Positions 10,102 through 31,331 of a stretch of DNA of 41,584 bases are shown here, in pieces. The translations under genes and the position numbers were made by a program. Numbering within the stretch: position 1 is the stretch's first letter; each line of letters begins with the position of its first letter. The notes under the pieces are model-generated. The model did no database searches. It was not told the origin of the DNA and saw nothing but the letters and a program-made list of their open reading frames with translations. The stretch covers positions 1 to 41,584 of the forward strand of contig JAFMJH010000006.1 in assembly GCA_017853555.1 (NCBI GenBank), in the 5' to 3' direction. Source of the DNA: Steroidobacteraceae bacterium (lineage in GTDB: Bacteria > Pseudomonadota > Gammaproteobacteria > Steroidobacterales > Steroidobacteraceae).

Positions 10102-11757
10102 CTATACGCCTGCCCGCTCCGGGCGCCGGCAGCGGCCGAATACGTCGAGTTCGGGCCTATGGGCCTGCGTTGTCACGTCGAGCAGACCGAGCACCGAGTG
10201 GAACCAATGATCCTGCGAGATCGGTTGGCGGCGATTGGCGAGCAGACAGGCGTTGTCGACGCCGAGACGTCGCGCGAAGCCCTCGCCCTGCCAGAACACC
10301 ATGGGGACCCGAGTCTGCAACTCGGGCGCGATCGCGTAGGGCAAGGCGTGCAGGAACACGCCGTTCTCGCCCAACGATTCACCGTGGTCGGACACGTACC
10401 AGAGCGCCGCATCGAGTTTCGGCGCGCGCTCGGCGAGCATCGCGATGGTGCGCGCGAGCACATGGTCGGTGTAAAGCAAAGTGTTGTCGTAGGCGTTGAC
10501 GATCTCGGCGACGCTGCACTTCGAAAAGTCGACTTGCTTGCACGCCGGGGTGAAACGCTCGAACGCCGGCGGATAGCGCAGGTGGTAGCCGGGTCCGTGG
10601 CTGCCGATCAGATGCAGGATGATGACTTTGTGCGGCGCGGGCGCATCGAGTTCGACCGCGAGGTCACGCAGCAGGATTTCGTCGAAGCAGGGTTGGCCGG
10701 GCCGACACAGCGCAGGATCGGGCTTCGCGTCGGGCCGACGCTCGCCGATGTTGCGGCAGACGCCCTTGCAATCGGAATTGTTGCCGTACCAGGACACGGC
10801 GAAGCCGGCGCGCTGCAAGGCATCGAGCAGGTTGTCGCGCGCACTCGCGCGAGCGGATGAAAAATCGGCGCGACCCAGATCGGAAAACATGCAGGGCACG
10901 GAGATCGCCGTCGAGGTGCCGCAGGAGCTGACGTCGGTGAAATACACGAGACCCGGCACCTGCGCGAGTTGCGGCATCGTCGCGCGTGCATAACCACCCA
11001 GCTGCGCATTGGCCGCACGCGCCGTCTCGCCGACCACGAGCACCACCGCCGTCGGGCGTTGTGCGCCCTCGCCCGTCCAGCGCGACCCGCGCTTGGCATC
11101 GGCGGCGATCGCCTCGTACGGCAGCTTCGGTCGCGACACTTCCATCGCGTAGCTGCCGACGCCGCTCAGATAATTGAAGGGCACGAGCAGATGCCGCAAT
11201 TCGCGATGATTGCGCAACAGCGAGGCCTGATCCTGATAGAACACCGCCGCGATCACGCCGATGCCCGCGAGCGTCGCGGCGAGAACGCCTGCCTTGTGCA
11301 GCAACTCGCGCTGCCAGCTGATCTTGGCGAGCGGCACGCGCCACACCACGAGCGCCGGCACCATGCCCATCAAAAAGATGTAGCCCAGCAATTTGAGCGT
11401 CAAAAGTTCCGCCGACTCGGCCGGATCGGTCTCGAACACGTTGCGGATCATCACTTTGTCGATGAACACGCCGTAGGTGTCGATGAAATAGGTGGCGAGC
11501 GCGCCGAGCAGAAGGATGATGATCAGCGCCGGCTTGACGACGGGACGGATCGCGAACGGCGTGAGAAACAAATTCACGGCGAGAAACGCGAGCAGCGCCA
11601 CCGAGCCGTGGAACAAAAGATCGTGCAGGGACGCGATCGGTCGAACTTCCTGCACGCGCGCCCAAAATGGCAGATTCATCGCGAACAGGCACCAGAGCGC
11701 GACGCAAGCAGTCAGCGCGGTCGCCGAGAGCTGCGGCCAGAGTCCGTCGCGCTTCAT
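10102..11757 (-). CDS. eptA: lipid A phosphoethanolamine transferase (EptA/MCR-like)
   Basis: An inner-membrane enzyme that moves phosphoethanolamine from phosphatidylethanolamine to lipid A (or another envelope glycan), lowering negative charge and sensitivity to cationic peptides. The 551-residue protein has about five N-terminal transmembrane helices (to about residue 200) and a periplasmic sulfatase-fold domain. The nucleophile region S-S-C-G-T-S-T-A-x-S-V-P-C-M-F has its threonines at 281 and 283. Metal-binding S-D-H-G-E-S-L-G-E and H-L-I-G-S-H-G are also present. Its start overlaps the stop of the upstream cation diffusion facilitator by 4 bases (ATGA). The exact acceptor (lipid A, Kdo, heptose) cannot be told, so the symbol is provisional. 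Confidence 0.88.
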   Translation of the reverse strand: MKRDGLWPQLSATALTACVALWCLFAMNLPFWARVQEVRPIASLHDLLFHGSVALLAFLAVNLFLTPFAIRPVVKPALIIILLLGALATYFIDTYGVFIDKVMIRNVFETDPAESAELLTLKLLGYIFLMGMVPALVVWRVPLAKISWQRELLHKAGVLAATLAGIGVIAAVFYQDQASLLRNHRELRHLLVPFNYLSGVGSYAMEVSRPKLPYEAIAADAKRGSRWTGEGAQRPTAVVLVVGETARAANAQLGGYARATMPQLAQVPGLVYFTDVSSCGTSTAISVPCMFSDLGRADFSSARASARDNLLDALQRAGFAVSWYGNNSDCKGVCRNIGERRPDAKPDPALCRPGQPCFDEILLRDLAVELDAPAPHKVIILHLIGSHGPGYHLRYPPAFERFTPACKQVDFSKCSVAEIVNAYDNTLLYTDHVLARTIAMLAERAPKLDAALWYVSDHGESLGENGVFLHALPYAIAPELQTRVPMVFWQGEGFARRLGVDNACLLANRRQPISQDHWFHSVLGLLDVTTQAHRPELDVFGRCRRPERAGV

Positions 11758-12701
11758 CGACCGCCCGTGTCGTGATCGCGGTCGGGACGATGGTACGGAT
11801 CGACGTGCGCCATCAAGTTCAGCACCCGATGCCGTTGCATCACGCGCTCGCGCGCCGTGACGGCGATGTCGTGACCTTGTTCGACGTTGATGGACGGGTC
11901 GACCTCGAGATGCGCGTCGACCACGATCAGATCACCCATCTTGCGGGTGCGCATGTCGTGCACGGCGAGCACGCCGGGCGTCTCGCGCAAGGTTTTCAGA
12001 ATGGCGGCGACCTCTTCGTCGTCGGCGGCGCGGTCCATCAGATCGTGCAACGCATCCCAACCGAAGCTGAAGCCCATCTTGCCGACCATGAGACCCACGA
12101 CCAGTGCCGCGAGCGGGTCGAGCAACGGGTAGCCCGCGATGTTGCCGATGATGCCGATCGCGACCACAAGCGATGAGGCCGCATCGGAGCGCGCGTGCCA
12201 GGCGTTGGCGACCAGCATGCTCGATTTGACGTGCTGCGCGATGCGCAGCATGTAGCGGAACAACAATTCTTTGGCGACCAAGGCCGCGATCGCGACCCAG
12301 AGCGCGGCGTAGTGCACCGTCGGGATCGACGCCGGATCTTGCAGTTTGCGAAACGCCGACTCGAGCATGCCGACGCCGACCAGCAGCAACAGCAAACCGA
12401 GAATCAGCGAGGCGGCCGTCTCGAAGCGGTGGTGGCCGTACGGATGTTCGGCATCGGCGTCGCTGCGACTGTGCCGGTTGGCGAGCAACACCACGAAATC
12501 CGAAACGAGATCGGAGAGCGAATGGATGCCGTCGGCGATCAAAGCCTGCGAGCGCGTGAAGATTCCGGCCGTGATCTGCACGGAGGTGAGCACGACGTTG
12601 ACGAGCACGCTGACCCAGGTGCTGCGCGAGGCGGCGCGAGCCCGCTCGGCCGGGCTGACCACGGTATCGTCCGGATCGTCGTGATTGTCGTGAAAATCCA
12701 T
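11754..12701 (-). CDS. cation diffusion facilitator family divalent-metal exporter (FieF-like)
   Basis: A proton-coupled exporter of divalent cations such as Zn(II), Fe(II) or Mn(II). The 315-residue protein has six predicted transmembrane helices. Both H/D-x3-D metal sites are visible: A-D-G-I-H-S-L-S-D in helix 2 and H-A-R-S-D in helix 5. A cytosolic C-terminal domain contains V-D-A-H-L-E-V-D, the metal-sensing CDF dimerisation region. The N-terminus (H-D-N-H-D-D-P-D-D) is rich in His and Asp. It is coupled to the phosphoethanolamine transferase by an ATGA overlap and is divergent, 53 bases apart, from a second CDF gene. Metal specificity is not readable. Confidence 0.9.
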   Translation of the reverse strand: MDFHDNHDDPDDTVVSPAERARAASRSTWVSVLVNVVLTSVQITAGIFTRSQALIADGIHSLSDLVSDFVVLLANRHSRSDADAEHPYGHHRFETAASLILGLLLLLVGVGMLESAFRKLQDPASIPTVHYAALWVAIAALVAKELLFRYMLRIAQHVKSSMLVANAWHARSDAASSLVVAIGIIGNIAGYPLLDPLAALVVGLMVGKMGFSFGWDALHDLMDRAADDEEVAAILKTLRETPGVLAVHDMRTRKMGDLIVVDAHLEVDPSINVEQGHDIAVTARERVMQRHRVLNLMAHVDPYHRPDRDHDTGGR

Positions 12702-12754: not shown

Positions 12755-13687
12755 ATGACGATGCCGCCCCGACCCGCCGCCCACGACCATCGCTTCGGCG
12801 CCGACAACAGCGCCGCCGAACGGGGTACGCGACTTGTCATGTGGATCACCGCGGTCACCATGGTGATCGAGATCGTCGCCGGCTGGTGGTTCAATTCCAT
12901 GGCGCTGCTGGCGGACGGCTGGCACATGAGTTCGCACGCGCTCGCCATCGGCCTGAGCGCGTACGCCTATGCAGCCGCACGCCGCGAGGCCGACGATCAC
13001 CGCTATGCCTTCGGCACCTGGAAGATCGAAGTCCTGGGCGGCTTCGCAAGCGCCGTCCTGCTGCTGGGCGTGGCCGCACTGATGGTCGGCGGCTCGATCG
13101 AACGTCTCTTCCGTCCGGCGGCGATCCGTTACGAGGAGGCGATCGCCATCGCCGTGCTCGGTCTGATCGTCAACGTTGCCTGCGCCGTGGTGCTCGCGCG
13201 CGCCCACGATCACGATCACGATCATCATCACGATCATCACGAACACCATGATCACGAGTCGCATCACGATTTGAATTTGCGCGCCGCGTATTTGCACGTC
13301 GTCGCCGATGCGGCCACGTCGGTGCTGGCGATCGCGGCACTGGTCGGCGGACTCTTGTTCGGCTGGGCGTGGCTCGACCCGGTGATGGGCATCGTCGGCG
13401 CCGTCCTCGTGGCGACCTGGGCCCGCGGCTTGATCCGATCGACGAGCAGCGTCTTGCTCGATCGCGAAATGGATCATCCGATCGTCGCGCAGCTGCACCG
13501 GACCTTCGATGCGGACCCGCGCACCGAACTGACGGACCTGCACGTCTGGCGGGTCGGTCGCCGCGCCTATGCCTGCGCGCTCGCCCTGCGCACGGACGAC
13601 CGCGGCGTCACGCCCGAGGCACTGCGCGCACGCCTCGCGGCGTACCCCGAAATCGTGCATTCGACCATCGAAGTCGAACATCGTTGA
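12755..13687 (+). CDS. CDF family Co/Ni/Zn exporter with His-rich loop (DmeF/CzcD-like)
   Basis: A second proton-coupled metal exporter, 310 residues. Helix 2 has L-A-D-G-W-H-M-S-S-H and helix 5 has H-V-V-A-D-A-A-T-S, the two metal sites. Between helices 4 and 5 (residues 151-172, bases about 13205-13270) is a loop of His/Asp/Glu, a pattern seen in DmeF and CzcD proteins, where such loops bind or sense metal. The C-terminal domain has L-H-V-W-R-V-G. The ATG at 12755 is used; an ATG two codons later is possible. Homology to the divergent CDF neighbour is distant, so this looks like two subfamilies rather than a recent duplication. Cobalt or nickel is the likeliest cargo from the subfamily pattern. 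Confidence 0.9.
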   Translation: MTMPPRPAAHDHRFGADNSAAERGTRLVMWITAVTMVIEIVAGWWFNSMALLADGWHMSSHALAIGLSAYAYAAARREADDHRYAFGTWKIEVLGGFASAVLLLGVAALMVGGSIERLFRPAAIRYEEAIAIAVLGLIVNVACAVVLARAHDHDHDHHHDHHEHHDHESHHDLNLRAAYLHVVADAATSVLAIAALVGGLLFGWAWLDPVMGIVGAVLVATWARGLIRSTSSVLLDREMDHPIVAQLHRTFDADPRTELTDLHVWRVGRRAYACALALRTDDRGVTPEALRARLAAYPEIVHSTIEVEHR

Positions 13688-13752: not shown

Positions 13753-14778
13753 ATGCAAGTCGACATCATTCTCGAGCCGGACCTGACGCCGACCCAAGTG
13801 GCGGAACTCGGCCGCAAAGCGGAGTCCTACGGAATCCGGGCCGTGTGGTCATCCAACTATTTTGCGCACTGGGATTGCTTCATGTCGCTCGTGCCGCTCG
13901 CGCAGTCGACCTCCAGAATTTTGATGGGGCCGCTCGCGGTCAGCCCCTTCGAGATGCACCCGCTCAAAATCGCCAACAGCCTGCTGTCGCTCAACGAACT
14001 GTCGAACGGACGCGCGGTGATCGCGGTCGGCGCCGGTGAAGGCAACATCGACGCGATGCGCATCCAGCGCCCCGAGAAGATCGTGCGCGCTACCCGCGAA
14101 GGCATCGAAATCGTCCGCATGGCCGGTCGTGGTCAACTCGCGCAAGGATTCAAGGGCGAAGATTTCGGCATCAACCTGCCCTGCACTTATCCGTGGCTGA
14201 AGTCGCCGACGCAACCTTTGGTCTACGGCACGGCCTATCGCGAGCAAATGTTGCGCATGGAAGCGCGGGTCGCGGACGGCGTGTTCATCGGCTGCACGCC
14301 GCCGGAAGTGATGGCCCAGGCGATGGAGCAAGTCAAAGAAGGCGCGGCGAAACGCACGGCGGACATGGGACCGCTGCACACCAACACGTTCTGGGCCTGG
14401 CATTTGAAGCGCAATCGCGCCGAGGGCTATCGCGAATCACGACGTGAACTCGCGTGGCGCGCGATCAAACTGCAGAAAGAGATGCTGTTGCAGTGCCTGA
14501 ACGAGGACGAAGCGAATCTCGTACGCGCCAATTACGAGAAGTTCGTCGCCGCCTGGTTCGATCGCTCGGGCAACATCCAGGGCGTCCCCGAAGCCATCCC
14601 CAACCGCTTGTGCGAATACTTCACCTCGACCGGTGGCCTCGAGGATCTCGATCGCGAGATCGAGCGCTTCCGGATGTTCGGCCGCGCCGGTCTCACCGAA
14701 GTCGCGCTACGCCTGCACGATCAGCCGATGGAAGCACTCGAAATCATCGGCGAGCACGTGTTGCCTAAACTGCGCTGA
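13753..14778 (+). CDS. LLM class oxidoreductase (luciferase-like, F420- or FMN-dependent)
   Basis: A 341-residue TIM-barrel oxidoreductase of the bacterial luciferase/F420-reductase superfamily. It starts with M-Q-V-D-I-I-L-E-P and has S-S-N-Y-F-A-H-W-D after strand 2, G-P-L-A-V-S-P-F-E-M-H-P, and A-V-G-A-G-E-G-N, all typical of the Mer/F420-dependent dehydrogenase branch. The ATG at 13753 is preferred because the in-frame codons upstream are shadows of the CDF gene. The gene converges on the F420 gene train and overlaps the 3' end of the CofCGH gene by 14 bases. Its position makes F420 the likely cofactor, but members that use FMN also exist. Reaction and substrate are unknown. Confidence 0.88.
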   Translation: MQVDIILEPDLTPTQVAELGRKAESYGIRAVWSSNYFAHWDCFMSLVPLAQSTSRILMGPLAVSPFEMHPLKIANSLLSLNELSNGRAVIAVGAGEGNIDAMRIQRPEKIVRATREGIEIVRMAGRGQLAQGFKGEDFGINLPCTYPWLKSPTQPLVYGTAYREQMLRMEARVADGVFIGCTPPEVMAQAMEQVKEGAAKRTADMGPLHTNTFWAWHLKRNRAEGYRESRRELAWRAIKLQKEMLLQCLNEDEANLVRANYEKFVAAWFDRSGNIQGVPEAIPNRLCEYFTSTGGLEDLDREIERFRMFGRAGLTEVALRLHDQPMEALEIIGEHVLPKLR

Positions 14779-17692
14779 GCGCCGCACGCTGCACGACGCC
14801 GCCGTCGCGCAGCACGCTGCCATACAAGGTGCTGCGCTCGCGCGGGGTACGCCCGACCGAGCGGATCGCGGCGATCATCGCATCGGCATCCATTTGCTGA
14901 CCGTTGACCCCGCCCGCTGCGCGCGTGATCGATTCGTTCATGAGCACGCCGCCGAGATCGTTCGCGCCGGCATCGAGCACCGCGAGCGCGCCGTCGCGCC
15001 CCATCTTCACCCACGAAACCTGCACGTTCGGAATCAGACGACCGAAGGTGAGACGCGCCACCGCATGCATCAGCACGGCCTCGCGGAAACTCGGCCCGTT
15101 GCGCGCCAGCCCGCGACGCCATATCGGCGCTTCCATGTGCACGAACGGCAGCGGCACGAATTCCGTGAAGCCGCCCGTCTCGCGCTGCAAGTTGCGGATC
15201 GCGAGCAGATGACGCGCCCAATGCACCGGCGACTCGAGGTGTCCGAACATGATGGTCGACGTACTGCGCAGGCCGATCTCGTGCGCGTGCCGCATCACGT
15301 CCAGCCATTCGGCGGAATCGAGTTTGTCGGGACACAAGTGCGCGCGGACGTCGTCGCAAAGAATTTCGGCGGCCGTACCGGGCAACGTACGCAAGCCGGC
15401 GGCCGCGAGTTCACGCAGATAGTCGCGCACCGACATGCCCAGCGTTTCGGCACCGTGGCGGATCTCGAGCGGCGAGAACGCATGCACGTGCATGTCGGGC
15501 ACGGCCTCGACCACGGCACGCACGATGCCGAGGTAGGTATGGCCCGTGTATTTGGGATGAATGCCGCCTTGCAGACACACTTCCGTGGCACCGCGTTCGG
15601 CGGCCTCACGAACTCGCGCCGCGATCTCGGCAAGGTCGAGATCGTACCCGGGGCCGCGCAACGCGCGCGCGCTGCGACCTTTGGCGAAGGCGCAAAATCC
15701 GCAGGAGTACGTGCAGACGTTGGTGTAGTTGATGTTGCGATTGACGACGTAAGTGACGGCATCGCCGACTTGGTCGCGACGCAGCGCGTCGGCCGCACGC
15801 AGCACGGCATGATAGTCAGCGCCGTCGGCCGCGAACAACGTCACGAGGTCGCGCTCGACGGGTTCGTGCTGCGCCTGCAAACGCTCGAGCACGGCGGCGA
15901 CGCGCGGCGACGGCTTGCCTGCGGCGCGCTTCGCGAGACCGAGTTCACGCGCCGGCGGCGGCGTACCCGCCCCTGCGACCCAGCCATCGGCAAGCAGATA
16001 TCCCGACGCATCGACGCGCCGCCTCACGGCCGTGCGCAGCGCAGGGTCTAGCCAGCGCTGCGGCTCGGCGGCATACGCGGGCACGATCGCCAATCTTTGC
16101 ACGAGCACGCGACCGGCGAGCTCCGTCTCGCGCTCGAGTTTTTGCAACTCGGGCCACGGCGCCTCGGGGTTCACGTGATCGGGCGTCACGGGCGACACGC
16201 CGCCCCAGTCGTTCACGCCCGCCTGCACGAGCGCCGTCAAAGAACCCGCACTCAAATTCGGCGGCGCCTGGATAGACATGTTCGCACCGAAAATCAGCCG
16301 CGCCATCGCGATCGTCCATTGCAATTCTTCGAGCGACGGCTCGACGGAGTCGGCCATGCGGGTGCCGGGCTTGGCGCGGAAGTTCTGGACGATGATTTCC
16401 TGGATGTGGCCGTAGCGTTCGTGCAGATCGCGAATCGCGAGCAGCGTTTCGATTCGTTCGCGTCGCGTCTCGCCGATGCCGATCAAAAGTCCGGTGGTGA
16501 ACGGGACGGCCATCTCGCCCGCGGCACGCAAGGTCGCAAGCCGCGCCGTCGGGTGTTTGTCCGGCGAACGGTGATGCGGCCCGCCCTTCGCGCACAAACG
16601 CTCGGCCGCGCTCTCGAGCATGATGCCCATCGAAGCGGACACCGGTCGCAATTTGGCCAGATCCGTCGCCGTCATCACGCCCGGATTCAGATGCGGCAAC
16701 AAGCCCGTCTGTTCGAACACCAAGCGCGCGCAGTGCGCGAGATAGTCGAGCGTGCTGGCGAAACCGAGCTCGGCGAGTTCGACGCGCGCGGCCGCATAGC
16801 GTCGCTCGGGCTGATCGCCCAAGGTGAACAGCGCTTCGTGACACCCGGCGCGCACGCCCTCGGTCGCGATCGCGAGCACTTCTTCAGGGCGCAAATAGAC
16901 TTTCGCGCCCTTCGGCAACGGCGCCGCAAAGGTGCAGTAGTGACAAACGTCGCGACAGGCTTTGGTGAGCGGAATGAATACTTTGCGCGAATAACCGACG
17001 CGCATGCCGAACCCGGCGAGCGTCATCGCGGCGGCGCGCGCGAGCAACGCCGGCAAATCGTTTTCCTCGGCGAGCAGCAGCGCCTGCTCGGCCGGCATCG
17101 GCTCGCCCTCCAGATCTTCGGGCACGTCGACGTCGTGCGCGAGGCCTGCGACCTCGATCCGCAAGGCGTGCAGACCCGCGCGATGGGCGGCGGCCAAATG
17201 CGCCGCGGCGCTGCCGGCCCCGAATTGCGGCACGAGTGCATTCGGCAGCCGCAACCACAAGGCATTCGTACCGGTGCCGTGACGATCGGGCACCACCGCA
17301 AGATCGGCGGCGGAGGCGCGCTCGACGAGCGCGTCGATCTCGGCGGACGACACCTGTGGCACATCGGCTGGCACGACGAGCATCGCGTCGAAACGCGGCG
17401 CGCAGTGTTGCGCCGCGCATTGCACCGCCGCATTCAAACCCGTGCCGTGATCGTGCAAACGTTCGACGTTCGCCGGCAGTGCGAGCGCGTGGTCGGGCGA
17501 CACCACGATGACGTGATCGATGCGCTGCGCGCCGGCGAGCGCGCCGAGCACGCGCCGCAACATGCTCTCGACGAGATGCACGCGTCGCACCGGCGACATC
17601 ACGCCGGCGAGACGGGACTTGCCTTCGCCGAGCGTACGCACCGGCACGACTGCGACGACCTTGCTCACCCGCGTATCGCGCAATGCGTTCAC
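14765..17692 (-). CDS. triple-domain coenzyme F420 biosynthesis fusion CofC-CofG-CofH (phospholactate guanylyltransferase + FO synthase)
   Basis: A 975-residue fusion of three F420 enzymes. Residues 1 to about 195 are CofC/FbiD, the GTP-dependent guanylyltransferase that activates a phospho-acid: V-P-V-R-T-L-G-E-G-K-S-R-L, G-L-N-A-A-V, V-P-A-D-V-P, P-D-R-H-G-T-G-T-N-A-L, D-V-D-V-P-E-D-L. Residues about 200-560 are CofG, a radical-SAM enzyme with its 4Fe-4S motif at Cys246, Cys250 and Cys253. Residues about 590-975 are CofH, with a second radical-SAM motif at Cys660, Cys664 and Cys667. CofG and CofH together make FO from tyrosine and the flavin precursor amino-ribitylamino-uracil. CofG-CofH fusion is the known FbiC form; CofC joined in front with almost no linker is unusual. 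The GTG start at 17692 overlaps the cofD stop (GTGA). Confidence 0.95.
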   Translation of the reverse strand: MNALRDTRVSKVVAVVPVRTLGEGKSRLAGVMSPVRRVHLVESMLRRVLGALAGAQRIDHVIVVSPDHALALPANVERLHDHGTGLNAAVQCAAQHCAPRFDAMLVVPADVPQVSSAEIDALVERASAADLAVVPDRHGTGTNALWLRLPNALVPQFGAGSAAAHLAAAHRAGLHALRIEVAGLAHDVDVPEDLEGEPMPAEQALLLAEENDLPALLARAAAMTLAGFGMRVGYSRKVFIPLTKACRDVCHYCTFAAPLPKGAKVYLRPEEVLAIATEGVRAGCHEALFTLGDQPERRYAAARVELAELGFASTLDYLAHCARLVFEQTGLLPHLNPGVMTATDLAKLRPVSASMGIMLESAAERLCAKGGPHHRSPDKHPTARLATLRAAGEMAVPFTTGLLIGIGETRRERIETLLAIRDLHERYGHIQEIIVQNFRAKPGTRMADSVEPSLEELQWTIAMARLIFGANMSIQAPPNLSAGSLTALVQAGVNDWGGVSPVTPDHVNPEAPWPELQKLERETELAGRVLVQRLAIVPAYAAEPQRWLDPALRTAVRRRVDASGYLLADGWVAGAGTPPPARELGLAKRAAGKPSPRVAAVLERLQAQHEPVERDLVTLFAADGADYHAVLRAADALRRDQVGDAVTYVVNRNINYTNVCTYSCGFCAFAKGRSARALRGPGYDLDLAEIAARVREAAERGATEVCLQGGIHPKYTGHTYLGIVRAVVEAVPDMHVHAFSPLEIRHGAETLGMSVRDYLRELAAAGLRTLPGTAAEILCDDVRAHLCPDKLDSAEWLDVMRHAHEIGLRSTSTIMFGHLESPVHWARHLLAIRNLQRETGGFTEFVPLPFVHMEAPIWRRGLARNGPSFREAVLMHAVARLTFGRLIPNVQVSWVKMGRDGALAVLDAGANDLGGVLMNESITRAAGGVNGQQMDADAMIAAIRSVGRTPRERSTLYGSVLRDGGVVQRAALSAV

Positions 17693-18666
17693 GATGCGCG
17701 CCGTCCGGAAGGCGCCGCCGCGGCGCGCAAGCGCGCGGCCAATTCGAGCGACGCGTCGGCCACGCGCTCGCGATCTTCGAGCGATTGCATCAGCGTCTGC
17801 GTCGCGGTGAATTCGATGCCGAGCGCGCGTGCGGCCGACTCGTCGACGCGATCTACCACGTAGCCATCGACCAATGATCCGTAATGACGCACGACGGTCG
17901 CGAGATCGGCTTGCACGCCTAGCTCACCCATGATTTTCGCCGTGGGTCCCTTCACCGCCCGCCCCCCGATCAACGGTGACACTGCGATCAGCGGCACTCG
18001 CGCGGCACGCAGCGCGGCGCGCAGGCCGGGCACGGCGAGTATCGGGTCGATGCTCAAATACGGATTCGAGGGACAGAGCACGATGGCTTGCAGGTCCGGT
18101 GAGCGCAGCAAGGTCTCGAGCTCGGCGGTCGGTCGCGCTTGCGATGCGCCGCGAAACTCGAGCGCGCGCACGGCCGGCTCGCAGCGCAAGCGGACGAAGT
18201 AATGCTGGAATTCGAGTTGCCCGGCGTCGGTGTCGAGCAAGGTCGCCACCGGCGTGTCACTCATCGGCAAAATGGTGGTGTCGACTCCGAAGCGACGCGC
18301 GAAATCGGCGGTGATGTGCGTCAATCGTTCGCCGGCGGCAAGGCGGCGCGTGCGCTCGACGTGCACCACAAGGTCGCGATCACCGAGTGCAAACCAGTCC
18401 GGCGCACCCTGCCGACGTGCCTCGGCCATGAAGCCGAACGTTTCATCGGCTCGACCCCAGCCTTGCGCCGGGTGCACGACGCCGGCGAGCGTGTAGAGGA
18501 CAGTGTCGAGATCGGGACAAATGCAAAGTCCGAGATGCGTGAAATCGTCACCCGTGTTCACGAGCACGGCGAGCTCACCCGCCCCGAGTACACGCGACAA
18601 ACCGAGCGCGAGCTTCGCGCCGCCCACGCCGCCGGAGATCGCCAGCACCTTCGCCTGCGCCTTCAC
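17689..18666 (-). CDS. cofD: CofD/FbiA, 2-phospholactate (or phospho-acid) transferase of F420 biosynthesis
   Basis: Joins the GDP-activated phospho-acid made by CofC to FO, giving F420-0 or a variant. The 325-residue length is normal for the family. It begins K-A-Q-A-K-V-L-A-I-S-G-G-V-G-G-A-K-L, the family's glycine-rich N-terminus. Further family motifs are N-T-G-D-D-F, P-D-L-D-T-V-L-Y-T-L-A-G, C-P-S-N-P-Y-L-S-I-D-P-I, and P-L-I-G-G-R-A-V-K-G-P-T. The start is a GTG at 18666 whose last bases form the TGA of cofE (GTGA); longer frames upstream run through cofE and are shadows. Co-translation with CofE and the CofCGH fusion is expected. Identity is near certain; the exact acid moiety transferred is open. 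Confidence 0.96.
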   Translation of the reverse strand: MKAQAKVLAISGGVGGAKLALGLSRVLGAGELAVLVNTGDDFTHLGLCICPDLDTVLYTLAGVVHPAQGWGRADETFGFMAEARRQGAPDWFALGDRDLVVHVERTRRLAAGERLTHITADFARRFGVDTTILPMSDTPVATLLDTDAGQLEFQHYFVRLRCEPAVRALEFRGASQARPTAELETLLRSPDLQAIVLCPSNPYLSIDPILAVPGLRAALRAARVPLIAVSPLIGGRAVKGPTAKIMGELGVQADLATVVRHYGSLVDGYVVDRVDESAARALGIEFTATQTLMQSLEDRERVADASLELAARLRAAAAPSGRRAS

Positions 18667-19421
18667 CCGAAGAGGTCCTCGTTCAACGGTCGCAACAGAG
18701 CTCGACCATCGGTGAGCGGCGCCGAAAAGTCCAGCCCTCGCGCGATCACCACCGGCGTGCCTTGTGCGCCCTCGCCCATCACGAGGCCTGCGCCGGCGGC
18801 AACCGCATCGGCGAGCGCCACTTGCGTGGTCTGCATCACCCGTCCTTCCCGATCGGTTGCGCCACGCAGATCGACGAGCGCAGGAAGTCCCGCCACCCCG
18901 AGCGCCACGTTCACCACGCCCTGACGCCACGGTCGCCCGAAGCTGTCGCTGATGATCACGGGCACGCCGCCTAGCGCCTGCGAGAGTTGCGCGGCGGACG
19001 CGTCGCAATCGATCGGGAGCAACAACACCCGTCCGGCACCGTCGGGTTCGGCGCCCGGTACGTTCGAGCGATCGATGCCGGCGTTGGCCATGACGTAGCC
19101 GCAGCGATGCCGCGTGATGAGGATATTCGGCACCGCGCGCAAAACCGCACTCGATTCGTCGAGTACGACCTGCACGAAGCGCGGATCTTTGCGCACCCGC
19201 GCGGCGAGTTCGCGCGCTTCGGCTCCAGCCTCTACGCCGGCGAGATCGACGTAACGATTGTCGGCTTTGGAAACGGCTTTCTGCGCGACGACCAACGCGT
19301 CACCCGGTGCCAACTCGATTGCCGCCCTGCGCAAGGCGTCGCGGATCAGCGCGGCCAGATCACTGCCCGGAGTGATCTCGGGCAGACCGGGCACGGCCGC
19401 GAACGCGAGCGAGCGCGACAC
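18663..19421 (-). CDS. cofE: CofE, coenzyme F420-0:L-glutamate ligase
   Basis: Adds gamma-linked glutamate residues to F420-0 using GTP. The 252-residue protein covers only the CofE domain: P-G-L-P-E-I-T-P-G-S-D-L at the start, V-V-A-Q-K-A-V-S-K-A-D, N-A-G-I-D-R-S-N-V, L-P-I-D-C-D-A-S-A, and S-D-S-F-G-R-P-W-R-Q-G-V-V-N-V-A-L-G. It lacks the C-terminal nitroreductase-like domain found in mycobacterial FbiB, which reduces dehydro-F420. That absence argues against the phosphoenolpyruvate route. The GTG start at 19421 abuts the TGA of the reductase gene with no gap. Confidence 0.96.
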   Translation of the reverse strand: MSRSLAFAAVPGLPEITPGSDLAALIRDALRRAAIELAPGDALVVAQKAVSKADNRYVDLAGVEAGAEARELAARVRKDPRFVQVVLDESSAVLRAVPNILITRHRCGYVMANAGIDRSNVPGAEPDGAGRVLLLPIDCDASAAQLSQALGGVPVIISDSFGRPWRQGVVNVALGVAGLPALVDLRGATDREGRVMQTTQVALADAVAAGAGLVMGEGAQGTPVVIARGLDFSAPLTDGRALLRPLNEDLFG

Positions 19422-20084
19422 TCAATGCGCCGAGGGAGCTGCGCCCGTGATCTGCAGACCGGCGCCGTCGGCGGCGTAATGCTTGTTGATGAAGATCAGC
19501 ACCGACGTGAGCGCCTCGGCCGCCGCCGAGTTCGCGAGTGCGCCGGCATGCAAGCCGCGCAAGCCGCAATCTTCGACGACCTGCAGCACTTCTTCGCGCG
19601 CCGCTTTTTCGTCGCCGAACACGAGCACGTCGCAGGCGACGGCTTCGTCGGTGGCAAGTTTGTGGGCCGCGACGTTGTGGAAGGCCGAGACCACCCGCAC
19701 GCCCTCTCCGAGCGCCTGCTGCGCACGCAACGCCGCGCTTCCCTCGGGCGGCAATTGCACGCGCATGACCTTCGGCGGCACGAGCGGCACGGTGGTGTCG
19801 ACGACGATCTTGCCGCGCACCTGCGGCGCGATCTCGCGCAGCGTCGCCTCCTGATTCGCAAACGGCACGGTGACGATCACGAGCTCGCCGCGTGCGGCCG
19901 CGTCGAGATTGGTCGCCGAATCGACCGTGCGACCGAGCTCGGCACCGAGCGCGGCGGCCGTGGCGGTCGCCTTGGCGACGTCGCGCGAGCCGATGATGAC
20001 GGTACGACCGGCTTTGACGAGCCGACGGGCGATGGCAGCACCGAGTTGTCCGGTGCCGCCGATAATGGCGACGGAGGAAGTCAT
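19422..20084 (-). CDS. npdG: F420:NADP(H) oxidoreductase (Fno/NpdG-like)
   Basis: Transfers hydride between NADPH and F420, providing the reduced cofactor. The 220-residue protein has a Rossmann start (A-I-I-G-G-T-G-Q-L-G), G-S-R-D for the NADP phosphate, V-T-V-P-F-A-N-Q, D-T-T-V-P-L, and S-A-F-H-N-V-A-A-H, all matching NpdG/Fno. A general NADP-dependent oxidoreductase of this superfamily is the alternative, but its place between cofE and the rest of the train supports F420. The ATG at 20084 has no obvious ribosome-binding site. A 45-base gap separates it from the kinase gene upstream, the widest in this part of the train. Confidence 0.92.
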   Translation of the reverse strand: MTSSVAIIGGTGQLGAAIARRLVKAGRTVIIGSRDVAKATATAAALGAELGRTVDSATNLDAAARGELVIVTVPFANQEATLREIAPQVRGKIVVDTTVPLVPPKVMRVQLPPEGSAALRAQQALGEGVRVVSAFHNVAAHKLATDEAVACDVLVFGDEKAAREEVLQVVEDCGLRGLHAGALANSAAAEALTSVLIFINKHYAADGAGLQITGAAPSAH

Positions 20085-20091
20085 GGCGTCG

Positions 20092-20097
20092 ATTCTA
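20092..20097 (-). promoter_or_regulatory. possible internal -10 element before the F420:NADP oxidoreductase gene
   Basis: Reading leftward, TAGAAT matches the -10 consensus at five of six bases and ends 7 bases before the ATG at 20084, where no Shine-Dalgarno is seen. A start there would give a leaderless message for the core F420 genes. I see no good -35, so this is weak. Confidence 0.25.
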
Positions 20098-20129
20098 CCG
20101 GACGCACCGCCCGGGGCGTGGTTACGCGC

Positions 20130-21470
20130 TCAACGAATCAACACCGCGTAGAGATCTGCGACATTGGTGCCGGTCGGGCCGGTCACGAGCAGATCGTCGC
20201 TCGCCTGCAAGGCGGCATGGGCGTCGTTGTCGGCCAGCAAGGCGCTCGGGTCGATCCCGGCGCGCCGCATCCGCTGCCAGCTATCACCGTCCACGCAAGC
20301 CCCTGCGGCCGACGTCGGCCCGTCCGTGCCGTCAGTGCCCGCCGCGAACGCCCAGACGTCCGCCATGCCGTCGATACGCTGCGCCATGCGCAGCGCGAAC
20401 TCCTGGCAACGACCGCCCCGGCCCGAGCCCGTGACCCGCACCCGCGGCTCACCGGCCGCCAACACCACGACGGGTGTCTGCCCACGGCCCCGCTGTGCAC
20501 GCAGCGTCGCGATCCGGGAGAGCAAATCCTCGATATGCCGATCGAGATCGTCATAAAACGTACGGCCCAAAACCTCGACCTCGAACCCGCAGCCACGCGC
20601 CGCCTCGGCATAGGCCTGCAGCGCATCGTCGGGCGTGGCGATCACGGCGTAGGAGGCGGTGTCGAACCGCGGATCGCCGGGCTTCGGCGTTTCGGCGACT
20701 CGCCCTTCGACCCCACGCTCGATATGCGCAAGCACCGCGCGCGGCGCATCCGGCGCATAGTGCTGCAGAATCCGACTGGCCTCTGCGTACGTGCCCGGAT
20801 CGGGACGAGTCGGACCCGATGCGATCACGGCCGGGTCATCGCCTTCGACATCCGAAATCGCGAGCGTCATGCTCGCCGCCGGTGCGATCGTCACCGCAAG
20901 CCCGCCGCCTTTGAGTGCCGAGAGGTGTTTGCGCACGGCATTGAGTTCGGCAATCGATGCACCACCGCGCAACAAAAGTTCGGTCACTCGTTGCTTGTCG
21001 GCGAGCGTGATCCCGTCGACCGGTGCAACGACCAGCGCCGATGCACCGCCACTCAACAAAATCACGTGCCGATCGAGCGGTCCAGAATCCTTGGCGAACG
21101 CAAGCACGGCATTTCCCGCGGCGACACTCGAGACATCGGGAAGCGGGTGCGAAGCTTCGACGAGACGCGCGGTGGCGAGTGCTTCGACGTGCCCCGCTTT
21201 GACCACGACCAACCCGGCATCGATTTGCGACACGCGCGCCTCGAAGGCCGCCGCGAACCGCGCCGCCGCTTTGCCGATCGCGAGCAAACGCAGCCGACCC
21301 CCTGCGGCCCGATCGGGCCAAGGCAGCGCGGCACGTGCTGCGCCGCGCTCGAAGCGCAAGCCCCATGCATCGACCTGCAAGTACGACTGCAACACCTGCG
21401 CCGGTTGCACGGCACACAACGCTGCCTCGAAACAACCGCGCAACGCCGCGCGCTCGGCGTCGTGTTTCAT
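20130..21470 (-). CDS. glycerate 2-kinase family (GckA/TtuD, MOFRL) protein; candidate phospho-acid kinase for F420 synthesis
   Basis: Members phosphorylate D-glycerate at the 2-hydroxyl using ATP. The 446-residue protein has the N-terminal kinase domain (L-L-A-I-G-K-A-A near residue 60, L-L-S-G-G-A-S-A-L, N-A-V-R-K-H-L-S-A-L-K-G-G-G-L-A, S-D-V-E-G-D-D-P-A-V-I-A-S-G-P-T) and the MOFRL C-terminal domain (G-G-R-C-Q-E-F-A-L, G-T-D-G-T-D-G-P-T-S-A-A-G). The ATG at 21470 overlaps the stop of the CobW gene (ATGA), so it is translated with the train; more upstream starts lie inside that gene. Ordinary glycerate catabolism genes (tartronate semialdehyde reductase, glyoxylate carboligase) are absent nearby. 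Lactate differs from glycerate only by lacking the 3-hydroxyl, which makes a role in forming 2-phospholactate conceivable. Confidence 0.88.
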   Translation of the reverse strand: MKHDAERAALRGCFEAALCAVQPAQVLQSYLQVDAWGLRFERGAARAALPWPDRAAGGRLRLLAIGKAAARFAAAFEARVSQIDAGLVVVKAGHVEALATARLVEASHPLPDVSSVAAGNAVLAFAKDSGPLDRHVILLSGGASALVVAPVDGITLADKQRVTELLLRGGASIAELNAVRKHLSALKGGGLAVTIAPAASMTLAISDVEGDDPAVIASGPTRPDPGTYAEASRILQHYAPDAPRAVLAHIERGVEGRVAETPKPGDPRFDTASYAVIATPDDALQAYAEAARGCGFEVEVLGRTFYDDLDRHIEDLLSRIATLRAQRGRGQTPVVVLAAGEPRVRVTGSGRGGRCQEFALRMAQRIDGMADVWAFAAGTDGTDGPTSAAGACVDGDSWQRMRRAGIDPSALLADNDAHAALQASDDLLVTGPTGTNVADLYAVLIR

Positions 21471-22528
21471 GCGTCGCGCCGACAGCGACGCCAAAGATCG
21501 TCCCAGGCGGCGACGTCCCAGGCCTGATCGGCGCCGACGATCAACTCGATGCGCTGATCGCGACGCCATGCGGTCGAGACCATGGAACATTCGTCACCGA
21601 CGCGCTGCAACAGCACCCACTCGTCTTCGGCGACACGCAGCACCGCCTTCAAACGTTGGAAGTCACCGAGCGCCGGATCGAGCATACTGCGCGGCCGCTG
21701 CAAGGCGCTCGACAGCGCCTCGCGCGAGAACGCGACGCGGGGCGGAAACGTCCAACTTGCGCCCGCATAGCCGAGATGCTCGATGCTACGACGCTCGGCG
21801 TCGCCGACTTGTTCGACGTGCGCGGCGTGTTCGTGCGCAGGATGCGCTCGTGCAGCGGCATGCTGCGCCGGCCTGCGCTGCGAGGCGCGCGCCTCGGCGG
21901 CGATGCCGTGCCGGTCGCGACGGATCGCATCCCAAGCGGCATTCGGCAACTCCCCGCGCACGATGCCGCCGAACCATTTTTTGGCCGGATACAGCGCGCC
22001 CGCCAAAGATTCGAATTCACGCAGACATGAAGCATCGGCGAGATCCGTCTTCGAGAGCGCGAGCACATCGGCGATCTCCGCGGTGGCGCGCGCCGGCTCC
22101 GCGTCGGTCGCCCGCAGCAAAGGCACACGCGCCGCATCGACGAGGCCGATCACCGCTTCGAGCCGCAGCCCGCCCTGCGCCTGATGCATCAACAATTCTT
22201 CGACGATGCCGGCCGGATGTCCGATGCCCGAAGGCTCGACGATGATGCGTGCCGGCCGCTCGCGCGCCGCGACCAACTCGAGCAGGTTGCGGCGGAAATC
22301 GGCTTCTCCGACGCAGCAGATGCATCCGCCCGGCACCATGCGCACGTCGTAGGCACCGCGCGCGGCGGCGGCGACGGTCAAGGCGTCGATGCCCGCCTCA
22401 CTGAATTCGTTGAGCAACACCGCCCAGTTTTCTTCGGGCGGCTTGGTGGCGAGCAAACGCGCGATCAACGTGGTCTTGCCGCAACCGAGCGGGCCGGAGA
22501 CGACCCATGCCGGAATCGGCGAACTCAC
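21467..22528 (-). CDS. CobW/COG0523 family GTPase, putative metallochaperone
   Basis: A G3E-class GTPase that delivers metal (zinc, cobalt or iron, depending on subgroup) to target proteins. The 353-residue protein has a Walker A motif G-P-L-G-C-G-K-T-T (residues 12-20), the family's G-C-I-C-C metal site (Cys69, Cys71, Cys72), E-P-S-G-I-G-H-P, and the base-specificity motif S-K-T-D. An Ala/His-rich linker (about residues 235-262) precedes the small C-terminal CobW domain. The GTG start at 22528 overlaps the stop of the C-N hydrolase gene (GTGA). The client metalloenzyme is unknown; candidates in the same train are the iron-dependent Rieske oxygenase and the kinase. Confidence 0.9.
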   Translation of the reverse strand: MSSPIPAWVVSGPLGCGKTTLIARLLATKPPEENWAVLLNEFSEAGIDALTVAAAARGAYDVRMVPGGCICCVGEADFRRNLLELVAARERPARIIVEPSGIGHPAGIVEELLMHQAQGGLRLEAVIGLVDAARVPLLRATDAEPARATAEIADVLALSKTDLADASCLREFESLAGALYPAKKWFGGIVRGELPNAAWDAIRRDRHGIAAEARASQRRPAQHAAARAHPAHEHAAHVEQVGDAERRSIEHLGYAGASWTFPPRVAFSREALSSALQRPRSMLDPALGDFQRLKAVLRVAEDEWVLLQRVGDECSMVSTAWRRDQRIELIVGADQAWDVAAWDDLWRRCRRDA

Positions 22529-23418
22529 CTGCGCGTGCCCGCCCCGTCGTGACTGACGAGCGCGCCGTACAACTCGGGACGGCGATCACGAAACACGCCC
22601 CAGGCCGCGCGCGCCGACGCCAGCGCATCGAGATCGAACTCGGCGGTGAGAATCGCGTCGGCATCGCGCGCCGCCTCGGCCACGATGGCGCCTTGCGCAT
22701 CGGCGATGAACGAACTGCCGTAAAAAGTGATGTGCGTGCGCGCCGGGTCCTGCGGCGCTCGCTCGAGACCATAGCGGTTCGCGGCGAGCAAGGGCGTAAG
22801 GTTCGCGCCGGCATGTCCTTGCTGCACGCGCTGCCAATGATTTCGCGAATCGATCGGCGCAGCGGGCGGCGGCTCACTGCCGATCGCGGTCGGATACAAC
22901 AACAGCTCCGCGCCCATGAGCGCCATCGCCCGTGCGCATTCCGGAAACCATTGATCCCAGCAGATGCCGACACCGATGCGTCCCACGCGGGTCGCCCAGA
23001 CGCGAAAGCCCGTATCGCCCGGCGTGAAATAGTGCTTTTCCTGATAACCGGGCCCGTTCGGAATGTGCGCTTTGCGATACACGCCGAGCACCGCGCCGTC
23101 GGCATCGACGATCGCCACGCTGTTGAAAAACGCCTGCCCGGCACGCTCGAAAAAACTCACCGGCAAAACGACGCCGAGCTCGCGCGCCAGCGTGCGTCCA
23201 AGCGCAACGGACGGATCGGACTCGAGTTCGTGCGCGAGCGCGAAATGACGCGGATTCTGCTCGATGCAAAAGTACGGCGTGGCAAACAATTCCGGCAGCA
23301 ACACGAGCTTCGCGCCACCCGCGGCGGCAGCGCGCACGCTGCGCTCGGCCGCGGCGAGATTGACGGCGCGCTCCGGAGCGCAGGCGAACTGCGTGACCGC
23401 GACGACGACGGATCTCAT
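22525..23418 (-). CDS. carbon-nitrogen hydrolase, nitrilase superfamily (N-carbamoylputrescine amidase-like)
   Basis: A 297-residue cytosolic amidase of the nitrilase superfamily. The triad is complete: Glu43 (L-P-E-L-F), Lys116 (Y-R-K-A-H-I-P) and Cys153 (G-I-C-W-D-Q-W-F-P-E). The I-C-W-D-Q-W-F-P-E-x-A-R-A-M-A-L-M-G-A-E signature and overall length are those of N-carbamoylputrescine amidase (AguB). No agmatine deiminase gene accompanies it, so polyamine synthesis is only one option; an amide or carbamoyl-amine intermediate of the Rieske pathway is another. The ATG at 23418 overlaps the Rieske gene stop and the end overlaps the CobW start, both by 4 bases, so it is firmly part of the gene train. 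Confidence 0.9.
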   Translation of the reverse strand: MRSVVVAVTQFACAPERAVNLAAAERSVRAAAAGGAKLVLLPELFATPYFCIEQNPRHFALAHELESDPSVALGRTLARELGVVLPVSFFERAGQAFFNSVAIVDADGAVLGVYRKAHIPNGPGYQEKHYFTPGDTGFRVWATRVGRIGVGICWDQWFPECARAMALMGAELLLYPTAIGSEPPPAAPIDSRNHWQRVQQGHAGANLTPLLAANRYGLERAPQDPARTHITFYGSSFIADAQGAIVAEAARDADAILTAEFDLDALASARAAWGVFRDRRPELYGALVSHDGAGTRR

Positions 23419-24539
23419 GCGCGCTGGACCGTCGGCAGCACCCACCCTTCGGGGTCGCGCGCGCGTGCAGCCGACGGCAACACGCGCACGCCGTGGTCGG
23501 AATTGCCGCCGTTGCCGGCGATCCACCACCCGCGCGCCGCGAGCGCAGCGATTTTGGCGCGCAACTTCATGGGCATCGCGTCTGCGGCGATCGTCAGTTC
23601 GTCGAGCTCGCGATCAGGCACGAACGCCGGTCGGCTCGCGCACACGACGGTGGCATCCTGCTCGTACACTTTGGTGACCATCGCGGCGCGATCGGCATCG
23701 TGCTCGGGCTCGCGCTTGTAAGTGCGCGCCTGGATCCAGAACGCCATGGTGCTGTGCTCGTCGATCGGCGTATCGCAAGACAAGATGCACTGCGCGATGC
23801 CCGGCGCCATGGTTTGCAAAATCTGGATCGTGAGACCCGACATGTGAAACTGCAGTTCACTCGAGGGTCTACGCGATCCGGGCGCCGCGCGGCCGGCCTC
23901 TTCGAGCGCGGCGCGCGAGGCACCGGATTTGTTCTCGATGGCCGCGGCGGTGAAACTGTGCGCGGTCTTCGCGCCCCACTGCGACTCCTCGATGATCGCC
24001 GGCTCGACTTTCGCCGCCGCCGGGTTGCCGAACGCCGGATGCACGAAATGCACGTGCGCGGTGTCGAGCCCGTTCTCCATCACGCGCTGCCAGTTCGCCG
24101 GAAAGTGGAACTTGCCCGCGATGCAACGCCAATCGGCGGACTCGAAATACGGCGCGAAGGTGTCGGGGATGGGCGGCCGCTCGTCCGCCTTCGCGTCACC
24201 GATGAACACCCACACGAGCCCGTAGCGCAGCTCGACCGGATACGCATCCACGCGCGCACGCTTCGGCAAATTCGCCTCGTCGCCGAGCGCGGGAATGCGT
24301 ACGCACTGACCTTCGCCGTCGAATTCCCAACCGTGATAGGGACAGGCGACGCGACCGGCCTGCAACTTGCCGCGACACAAGGAACCGCCGCGATGGACGC
24401 ACACGTCCGAGAGTGCGCGGATCACGCCCTCGGCATCGCGGAACAACACGAGATCCTGCCCCAGCATGCGCACGCCGAGCGGCCGATCGCTCGGCACATC
24501 GGACTCCAAAGCCGCCACGTACCAAAGATTGAGCAACAT
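23415..24539 (-). CDS. Rieske non-heme iron oxygenase, alpha-subunit type, in the F420 gene train
   Basis: A 374-residue oxygenase component. The Rieske domain has C47-x-H49 (C-V-H-R) and C66-x2-H69 (C-P-Y-H-G-W). The catalytic domain has the iron facial triad in N-G-L-D-T-A-H-x4-H (Asp159, His162, His167). The N-terminal 80 residues are strikingly like those of the Rieske protein at 6836-7933 (shared V-R-M-L-G, V-L-F-R-D, D/N-V-C-V-H-R, A-C-P-Y-H-G-W-E-F-D-G). No reductase partner is encoded in the window. The ATG at 24539 is fixed by a strong GGGAGGT site 4 bases upstream. Substrate unknown; demethylation or hydroxylation of an aromatic or heterocyclic compound is typical of the family. Confidence 0.93.
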   Translation of the reverse strand: MLLNLWYVAALESDVPSDRPLGVRMLGQDLVLFRDAEGVIRALSDVCVHRGGSLCRGKLQAGRVACPYHGWEFDGEGQCVRIPALGDEANLPKRARVDAYPVELRYGLVWVFIGDAKADERPPIPDTFAPYFESADWRCIAGKFHFPANWQRVMENGLDTAHVHFVHPAFGNPAAAKVEPAIIEESQWGAKTAHSFTAAAIENKSGASRAALEEAGRAAPGSRRPSSELQFHMSGLTIQILQTMAPGIAQCILSCDTPIDEHSTMAFWIQARTYKREPEHDADRAAMVTKVYEQDATVVCASRPAFVPDRELDELTIAADAMPMKLRAKIAALAARGWWIAGNGGNSDHGVRVLPSAARARDPEGWVLPTVQRA

Positions 24540-24543
24540 CTCG

Positions 24544-24550
24544 ACCTCCC
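24544..24550 (-). promoter_or_regulatory. strong Shine-Dalgarno site of the Rieske oxygenase gene
   Basis: GGGAGGT lies 4 bases before the ATG at 24539. It is the best ribosome-binding site in the F420 gene train, settles the start against longer in-frame options, and suggests that this gene and those coupled to it are well translated. Confidence 0.75.
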
Positions 24551-24568
24551 GGGTGTTTGACTGCGCGC

Positions 24569-31277: not shown

Positions 31278-31331
31278 CCGCGCAGTCTTTCATCGCCGGG
31301 TCGCACAGGCAACTGTGACAAGGAAGTGACC

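What the first reader, a model, noticed from the sequence alone, without database searches (positions are those of the whole stretch)
14765..20084. Coenzyme F420 gene set with a CofC-CofG-CofH triple fusion in an apparent gammaproteobacterium
Seen: one 975-residue frame carries guanylyltransferase motifs (residues 1-195) and two radical-SAM CxxxCxxC sites (Cys246/250/253 and Cys660/664/667), coupled by overlapping stops and starts to CofD, CofE and an F420:NADP oxidoreductase. Known: CofG-CofH fusion (FbiC) is common in actinobacteria, CofC is usually separate, and F420 is rare in Gammaproteobacteria. Inference: a compact, self-sufficient F420 module in which joining CofC to FO synthase fixes the ratio of the two precursor branches.
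Basis: partly seen in the sequence, partly recalled or inferred. Interest (0 to 1): 0.88.

Follow-up and report, generated by a model that had tools for sequence, protein, structure and literature searches.

The report
Three-in-one F420 cofactor enzyme
A bacterium from a little-studied gammaproteobacterial genus carries an ordinary-looking set of genes for making the redox cofactor F420, except that three of the enzymes, normally two or three separate proteins, are joined into one protein, a join that evolution has made several separate times.

Summary
It sits in npdG-cofE-cofD-cofCGH, with 4-base overlaps at E/D and D/CGH. It is no sequencing error: 18 of 24 genomes of the genus, own included, carry it whole in one frame. 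The CofC catalytic residues checked are kept; the AlphaFold model is confident (pLDDT 88).

New here: the fusion is not unique. Of 115 FbiC loci, 29 are fused and 64 have cofC as a separate gene just upstream. The label needs 9 changes on the tree, at least 6 forced by well-supported branches; a single origin is rejected on a 36-row subset. The window's genus has the shortest junction. None of 100 CofC sequences has the Ser/Thr that marks 3PG-F420 makers. FbiC is uncommon in the class (15 of 369) but not in this family (66 of 217). A Mer-like luciferase-family gene largely tracks the module. 'Fixes the ratio' is untested. Known pathway, new variant of architecture.

The parts
14765..17692 (-). 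cofCGH: CofC-CofG-CofH fusion, 975 aa, GTG start
   Evidence: domains; 18 of 24 genus genomes whole in one frame; model pLDDT 88.4, pTM 0.82
17108..17653 (-). CofC domain, residues 14-195 (phospho-acid guanylyltransferase)
   Evidence: TIGR03552 155.7 bits; PDB 7P97 E 3.2e-19; Foldseek 7P97 TMt 0.87, rmsd 1.6; one search checked catalytic residues intact
16994..17107 (-). Junction, residues 196-233 by the family models; helical in the model; 35-37 residues between the BLAST matches in the genus
16025..16993 (-). CofG domain, residues 234-556 (radical SAM)
   Evidence: TIGR03550 499.9 bits
16934..16957 (-). CofG radical-SAM site CRDVCHYC, Cys246/250/253
   Evidence: all three Cys invariant in 47 aligned sequences
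14813..15856 (-). CofH domain, residues 613-960 (radical SAM)
   Evidence: TIGR03551 533.1 bits
15692..15715 (-). CofH radical-SAM site CTYSCGFC, Cys660/664/667
   Evidence: all three Cys invariant in 47 aligned sequences
17689..18666 (-). cofD, 325 aa, GTG start overlapping the cofE stop; its stop overlaps the cofCGH start
   Evidence: TIGR01819 290 bits; junctions
18663..19421 (-). cofE, 252 aa, free-standing ligase without the FbiB nitroreductase half
   Evidence: TIGR01916 232.7 bits; only PF01996
19422..20084 (-). npdG, NADPH:F420 oxidoreductase, 220 aa
   Evidence: TIGR01915 182.9 bits; PDB 5N2I E 1e-32
13753..14778 (+). Luciferase-family (LLM) oxidoreductase, nearest solved structures F420-dependent Mer; convergent, 3' end overlapping cofCGH by 14 bases; likely F420 user
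   Evidence: PF00296; nearest PDB are Mer; below every curated cut-off listed; co-occurrence
20130..21590 (-). DUF4147/MOFRL glycerate-2-kinase-like gene, 45 bases upstream of npdG; neighbour, probably not part of the module
   Evidence: kept in G004 without CofD or the fusion, and not beside npdG in G020

Best explanation
A trifunctional F420-biosynthesis enzyme in an otherwise standard proteobacterial F420 operon. CofH and CofG make FO from tyrosine and the riboflavin precursor 5-amino-6-ribitylaminouracil. The N-terminal CofC domain activates a C3 phospho-acid (2-phospholactate or phosphoenolpyruvate type, not 3-phosphoglycerate) with GTP. CofD joins the two into F420-0 or dehydro-F420-0, CofE adds glutamates, and NpdG reduces F420 with NADPH. 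The fusion came from the order cofC-fbiC by loss of the stop and shortening of the junction in an ancestor of this genus, and similar joins happened independently elsewhere. Shown here: architecture, intact sites, conservation, repeated origin. Inferred from family membership: the reactions. Inferred only: the direction split-to-fused, and that the LLM neighbour uses the cofactor.
For: Curated-model hits above cut-off for CofC, CofG, CofH, CofD, CofE and NpdG. Whole fused frame in 18 of 24 genus genomes; the 17 others are 66-78% identical to the window's protein. Seven CofC positions (K26, the three Mg-binding Asp, and the T147, N148 and S165 equivalents) are kept in 29 of 29 fused sequences, and the S162 equivalent is Gly in 29 of 29. 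Both Cys triplets invariant in 47 sequences. Model pLDDT 88.4, pTM 0.82, with the CofC part matching 7P97 and the best radical-SAM match MqnE. Same order npdG-cofE-cofD-cofC-fbiC in many Alpha- and Gammaproteobacteria with separate genes. The C and GH domains give the same 19-row clade (SH-aLRT 99 and 100). One fused clade rejected, p-AU 1.9e-61, on 36 chosen rows.
Against: No expression or metabolite data exist. The phospho-acid is not identified; 2-phospholactate has no known kinase (review passage), and the PEP route needs a reductase that was not recognised (the single nitroreductase match of the genome is YdjA-like). In one genus member (G022) CofG and CofH are gone and CofC is a remnant, in another (G008) the frame breaks inside CofG, and G004 has none of it, so the module is dispensable. 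On the CofC tree only 2 of the 9 changes are forced. The 'fixed ratio' idea has no support beyond the join itself.
Confidence: 0.9

Rival explanations
1. Assembly or base-calling artefact: a stop between cofC and fbiC was lost in this contig.
For: The genome is a draft of 74 contigs.
Against: The same uninterrupted frame in 17 other genomes of the genus and in G200 of another genus of the family, with junctions of 105, 108, 111 and 117 bases; also in assemblies of named isolates, L027 and L033.
Confidence: 0.01
2. The gene also makes a free CofGH (FbiC) by internal initiation at the Met199 codon, so the cell holds both fused and unfused FO synthase.
For: An in-frame ATG lies at this place in 16 of 18 genus sequences, and in the window it is preceded by GGAGG at 8 bases.
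Against: GGAGG stands there in the window only (L007 has GAAGG, the others neither); the ATG may only be the scar of the old fbiC start or a conserved Met.
Confidence: 0.1
3. The operon makes 3PG-F420, as in Mycetohabitans, rather than classical F420.
For: A glycerate-2-kinase-like gene lies next to npdG, and no dehydro-F420 reductase gene was recognised.
Against: The diagnostic Ser/Thr position is Gly in the window and in all 29 fused sequences, and 0 of 100 CofC sequences have Ser/Thr there (diagnostic from PMC8764529, passages and section 5 seen).
Confidence: 0.05
4. The neighbouring DUF4147/MOFRL kinase supplies the phospho-acid (a bacterial answer to the missing lactate kinase 'CofB').
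For: Same strand, 45 bases upstream of npdG; the same place in 16 of the 17 genus loci (window included) whose sequence reaches that far.
Against: In G020, which has the fusion, cofD, cofE and npdG, the kinase is not beside npdG although about 6 kb more were held (L128). In G004 (98% complete) the kinase and its two upstream partners are kept, while CofD, the fusion and the LLM gene were not found in the genome and no npdG or cofE match lies in the 13.9 kb held around the kinase. The kinase was not seen beside F420 genes outside the genus in the stretches held. Its identity within the genus is low (38-50%).
Confidence: 0.04

Closest known systems
FbiC (CofG-CofH fusion, PRK09234), as in Actinobacteria and Proteobacteria
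   Same: Order CofG-CofH, both radical-SAM sites, 1087 bits against a cut-off of 1018
   Different: A CofC domain precedes it in the same chain
CofC / FbiD guanylyltransferase (TIGR03552; PDB 7P97, 6BWG, 2I5E)
   Same: Fold (TMt 0.77-0.87 for chains of these three) and the catalytic residues checked
   Different: Not free-standing; joined to CofGH by a junction shorter than in the other fused loci
FbiB (CofE-FbiE fusion) of mycobacteria
   Same: Another fusion of F420-pathway enzymes (PMC8498797, passages)
   Different: Other domains joined; here CofE is free and no FbiE half is present
Mycetohabitans 3PG-F420 cluster (cofD, fbiC, cofC, cofE as separate genes; PMC11104420, passages)
   Same: Gram-negative F420 gene cluster with separate CofE
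   Different: cofC and fbiC separate there; CofC there has Ser at the 3-PG position, here Gly

Membership tests
FbiC (FO synthase) | CofG and CofH domains in one chain, each with CxxxCxxC | tested here: met
FbiC (FO synthase) | Makes FO | not testable with these tools
   needs expression and LC-MS
CofC/FbiD guanylyltransferase | TIGR03552 above cut-off; three Mg-binding Asp, Lys, Thr-Asn and Ser of the pocket | tested here: met
3-PG-activating CofC | Ser or Thr at the Mrhiz-CofC S162 position | tested here: not met
   Gly in the window and in 29 of 29 fused; 0 of 100 with Ser/Thr
PEP (mycobacterial) F420 route | FbiB C-terminal nitroreductase or free FbiE | tested here: inconclusive
   CofE lacks the half; the only PF00881 match of the genome scores 33.6 against a cut-off of 249.6 for FbiB-C; another reductase is possible and the genome is 93.8% complete
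Complete F420 operon | CofC, CofD, CofE, CofG, CofH and an F420 reductase | tested here: met
Mer (methylene-H4MPT reductase) for the LLM neighbour | TIGR03555 / PRK02271 above cut-off | tested here: not met
   84.9 against 348.7 and 118.8 against 276

The most novel reading that the evidence does not exclude
The CofC domain is a docking arm. CofC works only together with CofD, and FO leaks through membranes. Joining CofC to FO synthase would hold CofD beside the place where FO is released, so FO is captured before it escapes. Repeated independent joins of CofC to the FO side, seen in both Alpha- and Gammaproteobacteria, would then be convergent evolution of an F420 metabolon, not accidents of gene order.
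Probability: 0.2. Interest if true: 0.65.

Novelty: new variant of a known kind. Interest (0 to 1): 0.43.

Why it matters
F420 is wanted for biocatalysis but is not made by common laboratory hosts; a natural one-chain source of FO and the activated phospho-acid, in a four-gene set with its own NADPH reductase, is a compact module to try. The several independent joins offer a natural experiment: fused and unfused relatives can be compared for FO leakage and F420 yield. They also put the open question of the in vivo phospho-acid (2-phospholactate or PEP) within reach in Gram-negative bacteria whose CofE lacks the FbiB reductase half.

Tried and rejected
Glycerate-2-kinase as the phospho-acid supplier: judged unlikely, because G004 keeps it without CofD or the fusion and G020 has the F420 genes without it at that place. 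3PG-F420: judged unlikely on the diagnostic residue. Photolyase as FO user: the genome's single match is nearest to PDB 4U63 and falls well below the 8-HDF model (352.9 against 884.6), so it gives no support. F420H2 quinone-reductase family PF04075: no hit, but no control genome rang, so absence is not shown. Dehydro-F420 reductase: the only nitroreductase match is YdjA-like. The AU test on all 115 rows did not finish, so it was run on 36 rows that I chose after seeing the tree: 13 of the 29 fused (L064 left out for its long branch) and 23 of the 64 adjacent. Conserved internal start: not supported. Domain packing was not assessed (no pairwise error was returned with the model). The review's figures and Ney et al. 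2017 could not be read, so earlier notice of this fusion there cannot be excluded.

Rows dropped: one search left out identical proteins, three short ones (L113, L143, L157), the frame-broken L137, the contig-end L138, the remnant L139 and L114 (G and H not in one frame), leaving 115. The C tree further dropped 14 without C and L076 (short), leaving 100; the same 100 are counted. The one search counts (32 fused, 57 separate, 11 no C seen, of 100 loci) include the window's own copy and six duplicates. The alignment for the structure model held 47 sequences: the window, 28 other fused and 18 of the 64 adjacent.

Full report
WHAT IS THERE. The frame 14765-17692 on the minus strand is open for 975 codons from a GTG. 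Residues 14-195 match CofC (TIGR03552, 155.7 bits, cut-off 105), 234-556 match CofG (499.9, cut-off 213) and 613-960 match CofH (533, cut-off 374); the CofGH model PRK09234 scores 1087 (cut-off 1018). Upstream lie cofD, cofE and npdG, each above its cut-off. The cofE/cofD and cofD/cofCGH junctions overlap by GTGA, and npdG abuts cofE. A luciferase-family gene runs towards the fusion and overlaps its 3' end by 14 bases.

IT IS NOT AN ERROR. Of 24 genomes held for the genus (own included), 18 have the whole fusion in one frame. Of the other six, G010 has its first part at a contig end, G008 has a frame break inside CofG, G022 has a CofC remnant and no CofG or CofH match, and G004, G005 and G007 have none (G005 and G007 are 77% and 87% complete, so their absence is weak). 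The distance between the BLAST matches to CofC and CofG is 105 bases in 15 of the 18, 108 in two and 111 in one. In the AlphaFold model (pLDDT 88.4, pTM 0.82) the junction is helical. In Foldseek the CofC part matches 7P97 (rmsd 1.6) and the best radical-SAM match is MqnE. No pairwise error was returned, so how the domains pack is not known.

HOW WIDESPREAD. In 369 genomes spread over the class, 15 (own included) have an FbiC-level match (best E below 1e-100, my reading of the table). In the 217 genomes of the family, 66 have one (73 listed matches less seven that are weak, CofC only or a remnant). Of these 66, 23 have C-G-H in one match: 18 of the genus, G200 of another genus, three of genus g14 (one cut by its contig end) and G107 of g32. 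Among the 100 loci then held, own copy and six duplicates included, 32 were fused, 57 had cofC as a separate frame and 11 showed no cofC in the stretch held. The fused ones outside the window's genus are a same-family genome (L019) and records titled Pseudomaricurvus, Seongchinamella, another Halieaceae, three Rhizobiales/Hyphomicrobiales and one Rhodobacteraceae.

SEVERAL ORIGINS. On a CofGH tree of 115 non-identical loci (29 fused, 64 with cofC directly upstream, 8 with it elsewhere, 14 none in the stretch held) the fused label needs 9 changes, at least 6 forced by starred branches, against a shuffled mean of 25.8. It is a quick tree with one long row (L064). The window's clade is 19 rows, all fused, support 100. 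The tree of the CofC domain alone (100 rows, eight long ones) gives the same 19 rows at 99 and again 9 changes, though only 2 are forced. On 36 chosen rows the data reject one fused clade (p-AU 1.9e-61); the full-set test did not finish. The trees are unrooted for this purpose, so gain and loss are not told apart; I read the split state as ancestral because it is the commoner and the order cofC-fbiC is shared. Of the 64 adjacent loci, 15 have the two matches in one reading frame, where loss of stops would be enough. Outside the genus the fused junctions are 117-261 bases, in the range of the adjacent ones (167-378) or below; in the genus they are the shortest.

WHICH ACID. A crystal structure and mutants show that Ser/Thr at Mrhiz-CofC S162 goes with 3-PG use (PMC8764529; abstract, passages and section 5 seen). 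The window has Gly there, Leu at the M91 position and Thr at H145. All 29 fused sequences have Gly, and none of 100 has Ser or Thr. So 2-phospholactate or PEP is predicted. CofE has no nitroreductase half, and the genome's only nitroreductase match is YdjA-like (33.6 bits against 249.6 for the FbiB C-terminal model), so the PEP route would need another reductase. [quoted passage not shown]

THE NEIGHBOURS. The glycerate-2-kinase-like gene stands upstream of npdG in 16 of the 17 genus loci, window included, that reach that far; G020 is the exception, and four loci end too soon. In G004, 98% complete, it and its two partners are kept, while CofD, the fusion and the LLM gene were not found in the genome and no npdG or cofE match lies in the 13.9 kb held around the kinase. 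It is more likely a bystander than a part. The LLM gene is different: among 24 genus genomes CofD is found in 21 and an LLM orthologue at 77% identity or more in 20, of which G010 shows only 62 residues and G014 two pieces. All 20 have CofD. The one with CofD and no LLM orthologue, G020, has its fusion 179 bases from a contig end. The three without CofD have none. Its nearest solved structures are F420-dependent Mer, but it misses the Mer cut-offs. I propose it as the main F420 user; this is inference. The genome has two other luciferase-family matches.

WHY JOIN CofC TO FO SYNTHASE. What is in print bears on another idea: CofC acts only with CofD, its product is unstable, and FO diffuses out of cells while F420-0 does not (PMC8498797, passages, section 34). 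A CofC arm on FO synthase would bring CofD to the FO source. On the other side, the review reports that the two halves of FbiC pass their intermediate by diffusion, so proximity is not required for the chemistry, and simple loss of a stop between neighbours may be all there is. No test here separates these.

WHAT IS KNOWN. The review names CofG-CofH (FbiC) and CofE-FbiE (FbiB) fusions; I saw no CofC fusion in the passages and the two sections read. Searches of the held library for this fusion showed no paper on it by title or start of abstract among the rows listed (in only the top 20 to 30 of 28 to 112 papers were listed), on coined names, found none. The library lacks most subscription papers, including Ney et al. 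2017, so this is not proof of novelty. Verdict: real, well conserved, functionally ordinary pathway; new variant of architecture, with convergent origin as the interesting part.

Noticed in passing
L165 (G004:C31:9000-22933), compared with window 19422-23529: G004 keeps the three genes upstream of npdG but has no F420 genes at that place, and no CofD, fusion or LLM gene in the genome: the F420 module looks like a presence/absence unit within one genus.
   Followed up: partly
L139:8141-8590 (G022): A CofC remnant is left and no CofG or CofH was found, yet cofD, cofE and npdG give long matches; possible decay in progress or use of outside FO.
   Followed up: partly
G080, G083, G107, G213, G358: Several genomes hold a second FbiC locus; in G107 one copy is fused to CofC and the other is seen only in pieces at contig ends.
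   Followed up: no
window 30939-33677 (+): Phosphoenolpyruvate-synthase-like gene (PPDK_N, PEP-utilizers) 11 kb from the F420 operon; PEP is one candidate CofC substrate, but the distance makes a link speculative.
   Followed up: no
window 10102-11757 (-), 11754-12701 (-), 12755-13687 (+): Lipid A phosphoethanolamine transferase (above the general family cut-off, below the MCR cut-offs listed) overlapping one cation-diffusion facilitator gene, with a second, divergent one beside it.
   Followed up: no
window 6836-8086 (-) and 23415-25079 (-): Two Rieske oxygenases with VanA-type C-terminal domains on either side of the F420 region; the second ORF as listed probably has an over-long N-terminus.
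   Followed up: no
L150 (G218, contig of 3467246 bases): A single-contig genome of the same family whose length I recall as near that of Steroidobacter denitrificans; the family may be Steroidobacteraceae (recalled, not tested).
   Followed up: no
window 17096-17098 (Met199 codon): In-frame ATG preceded by GGAGG at 8 bases inside the fusion; the ATG is in 16 of 18 genus sequences, the GGAGG only in the window.
   Followed up: partly
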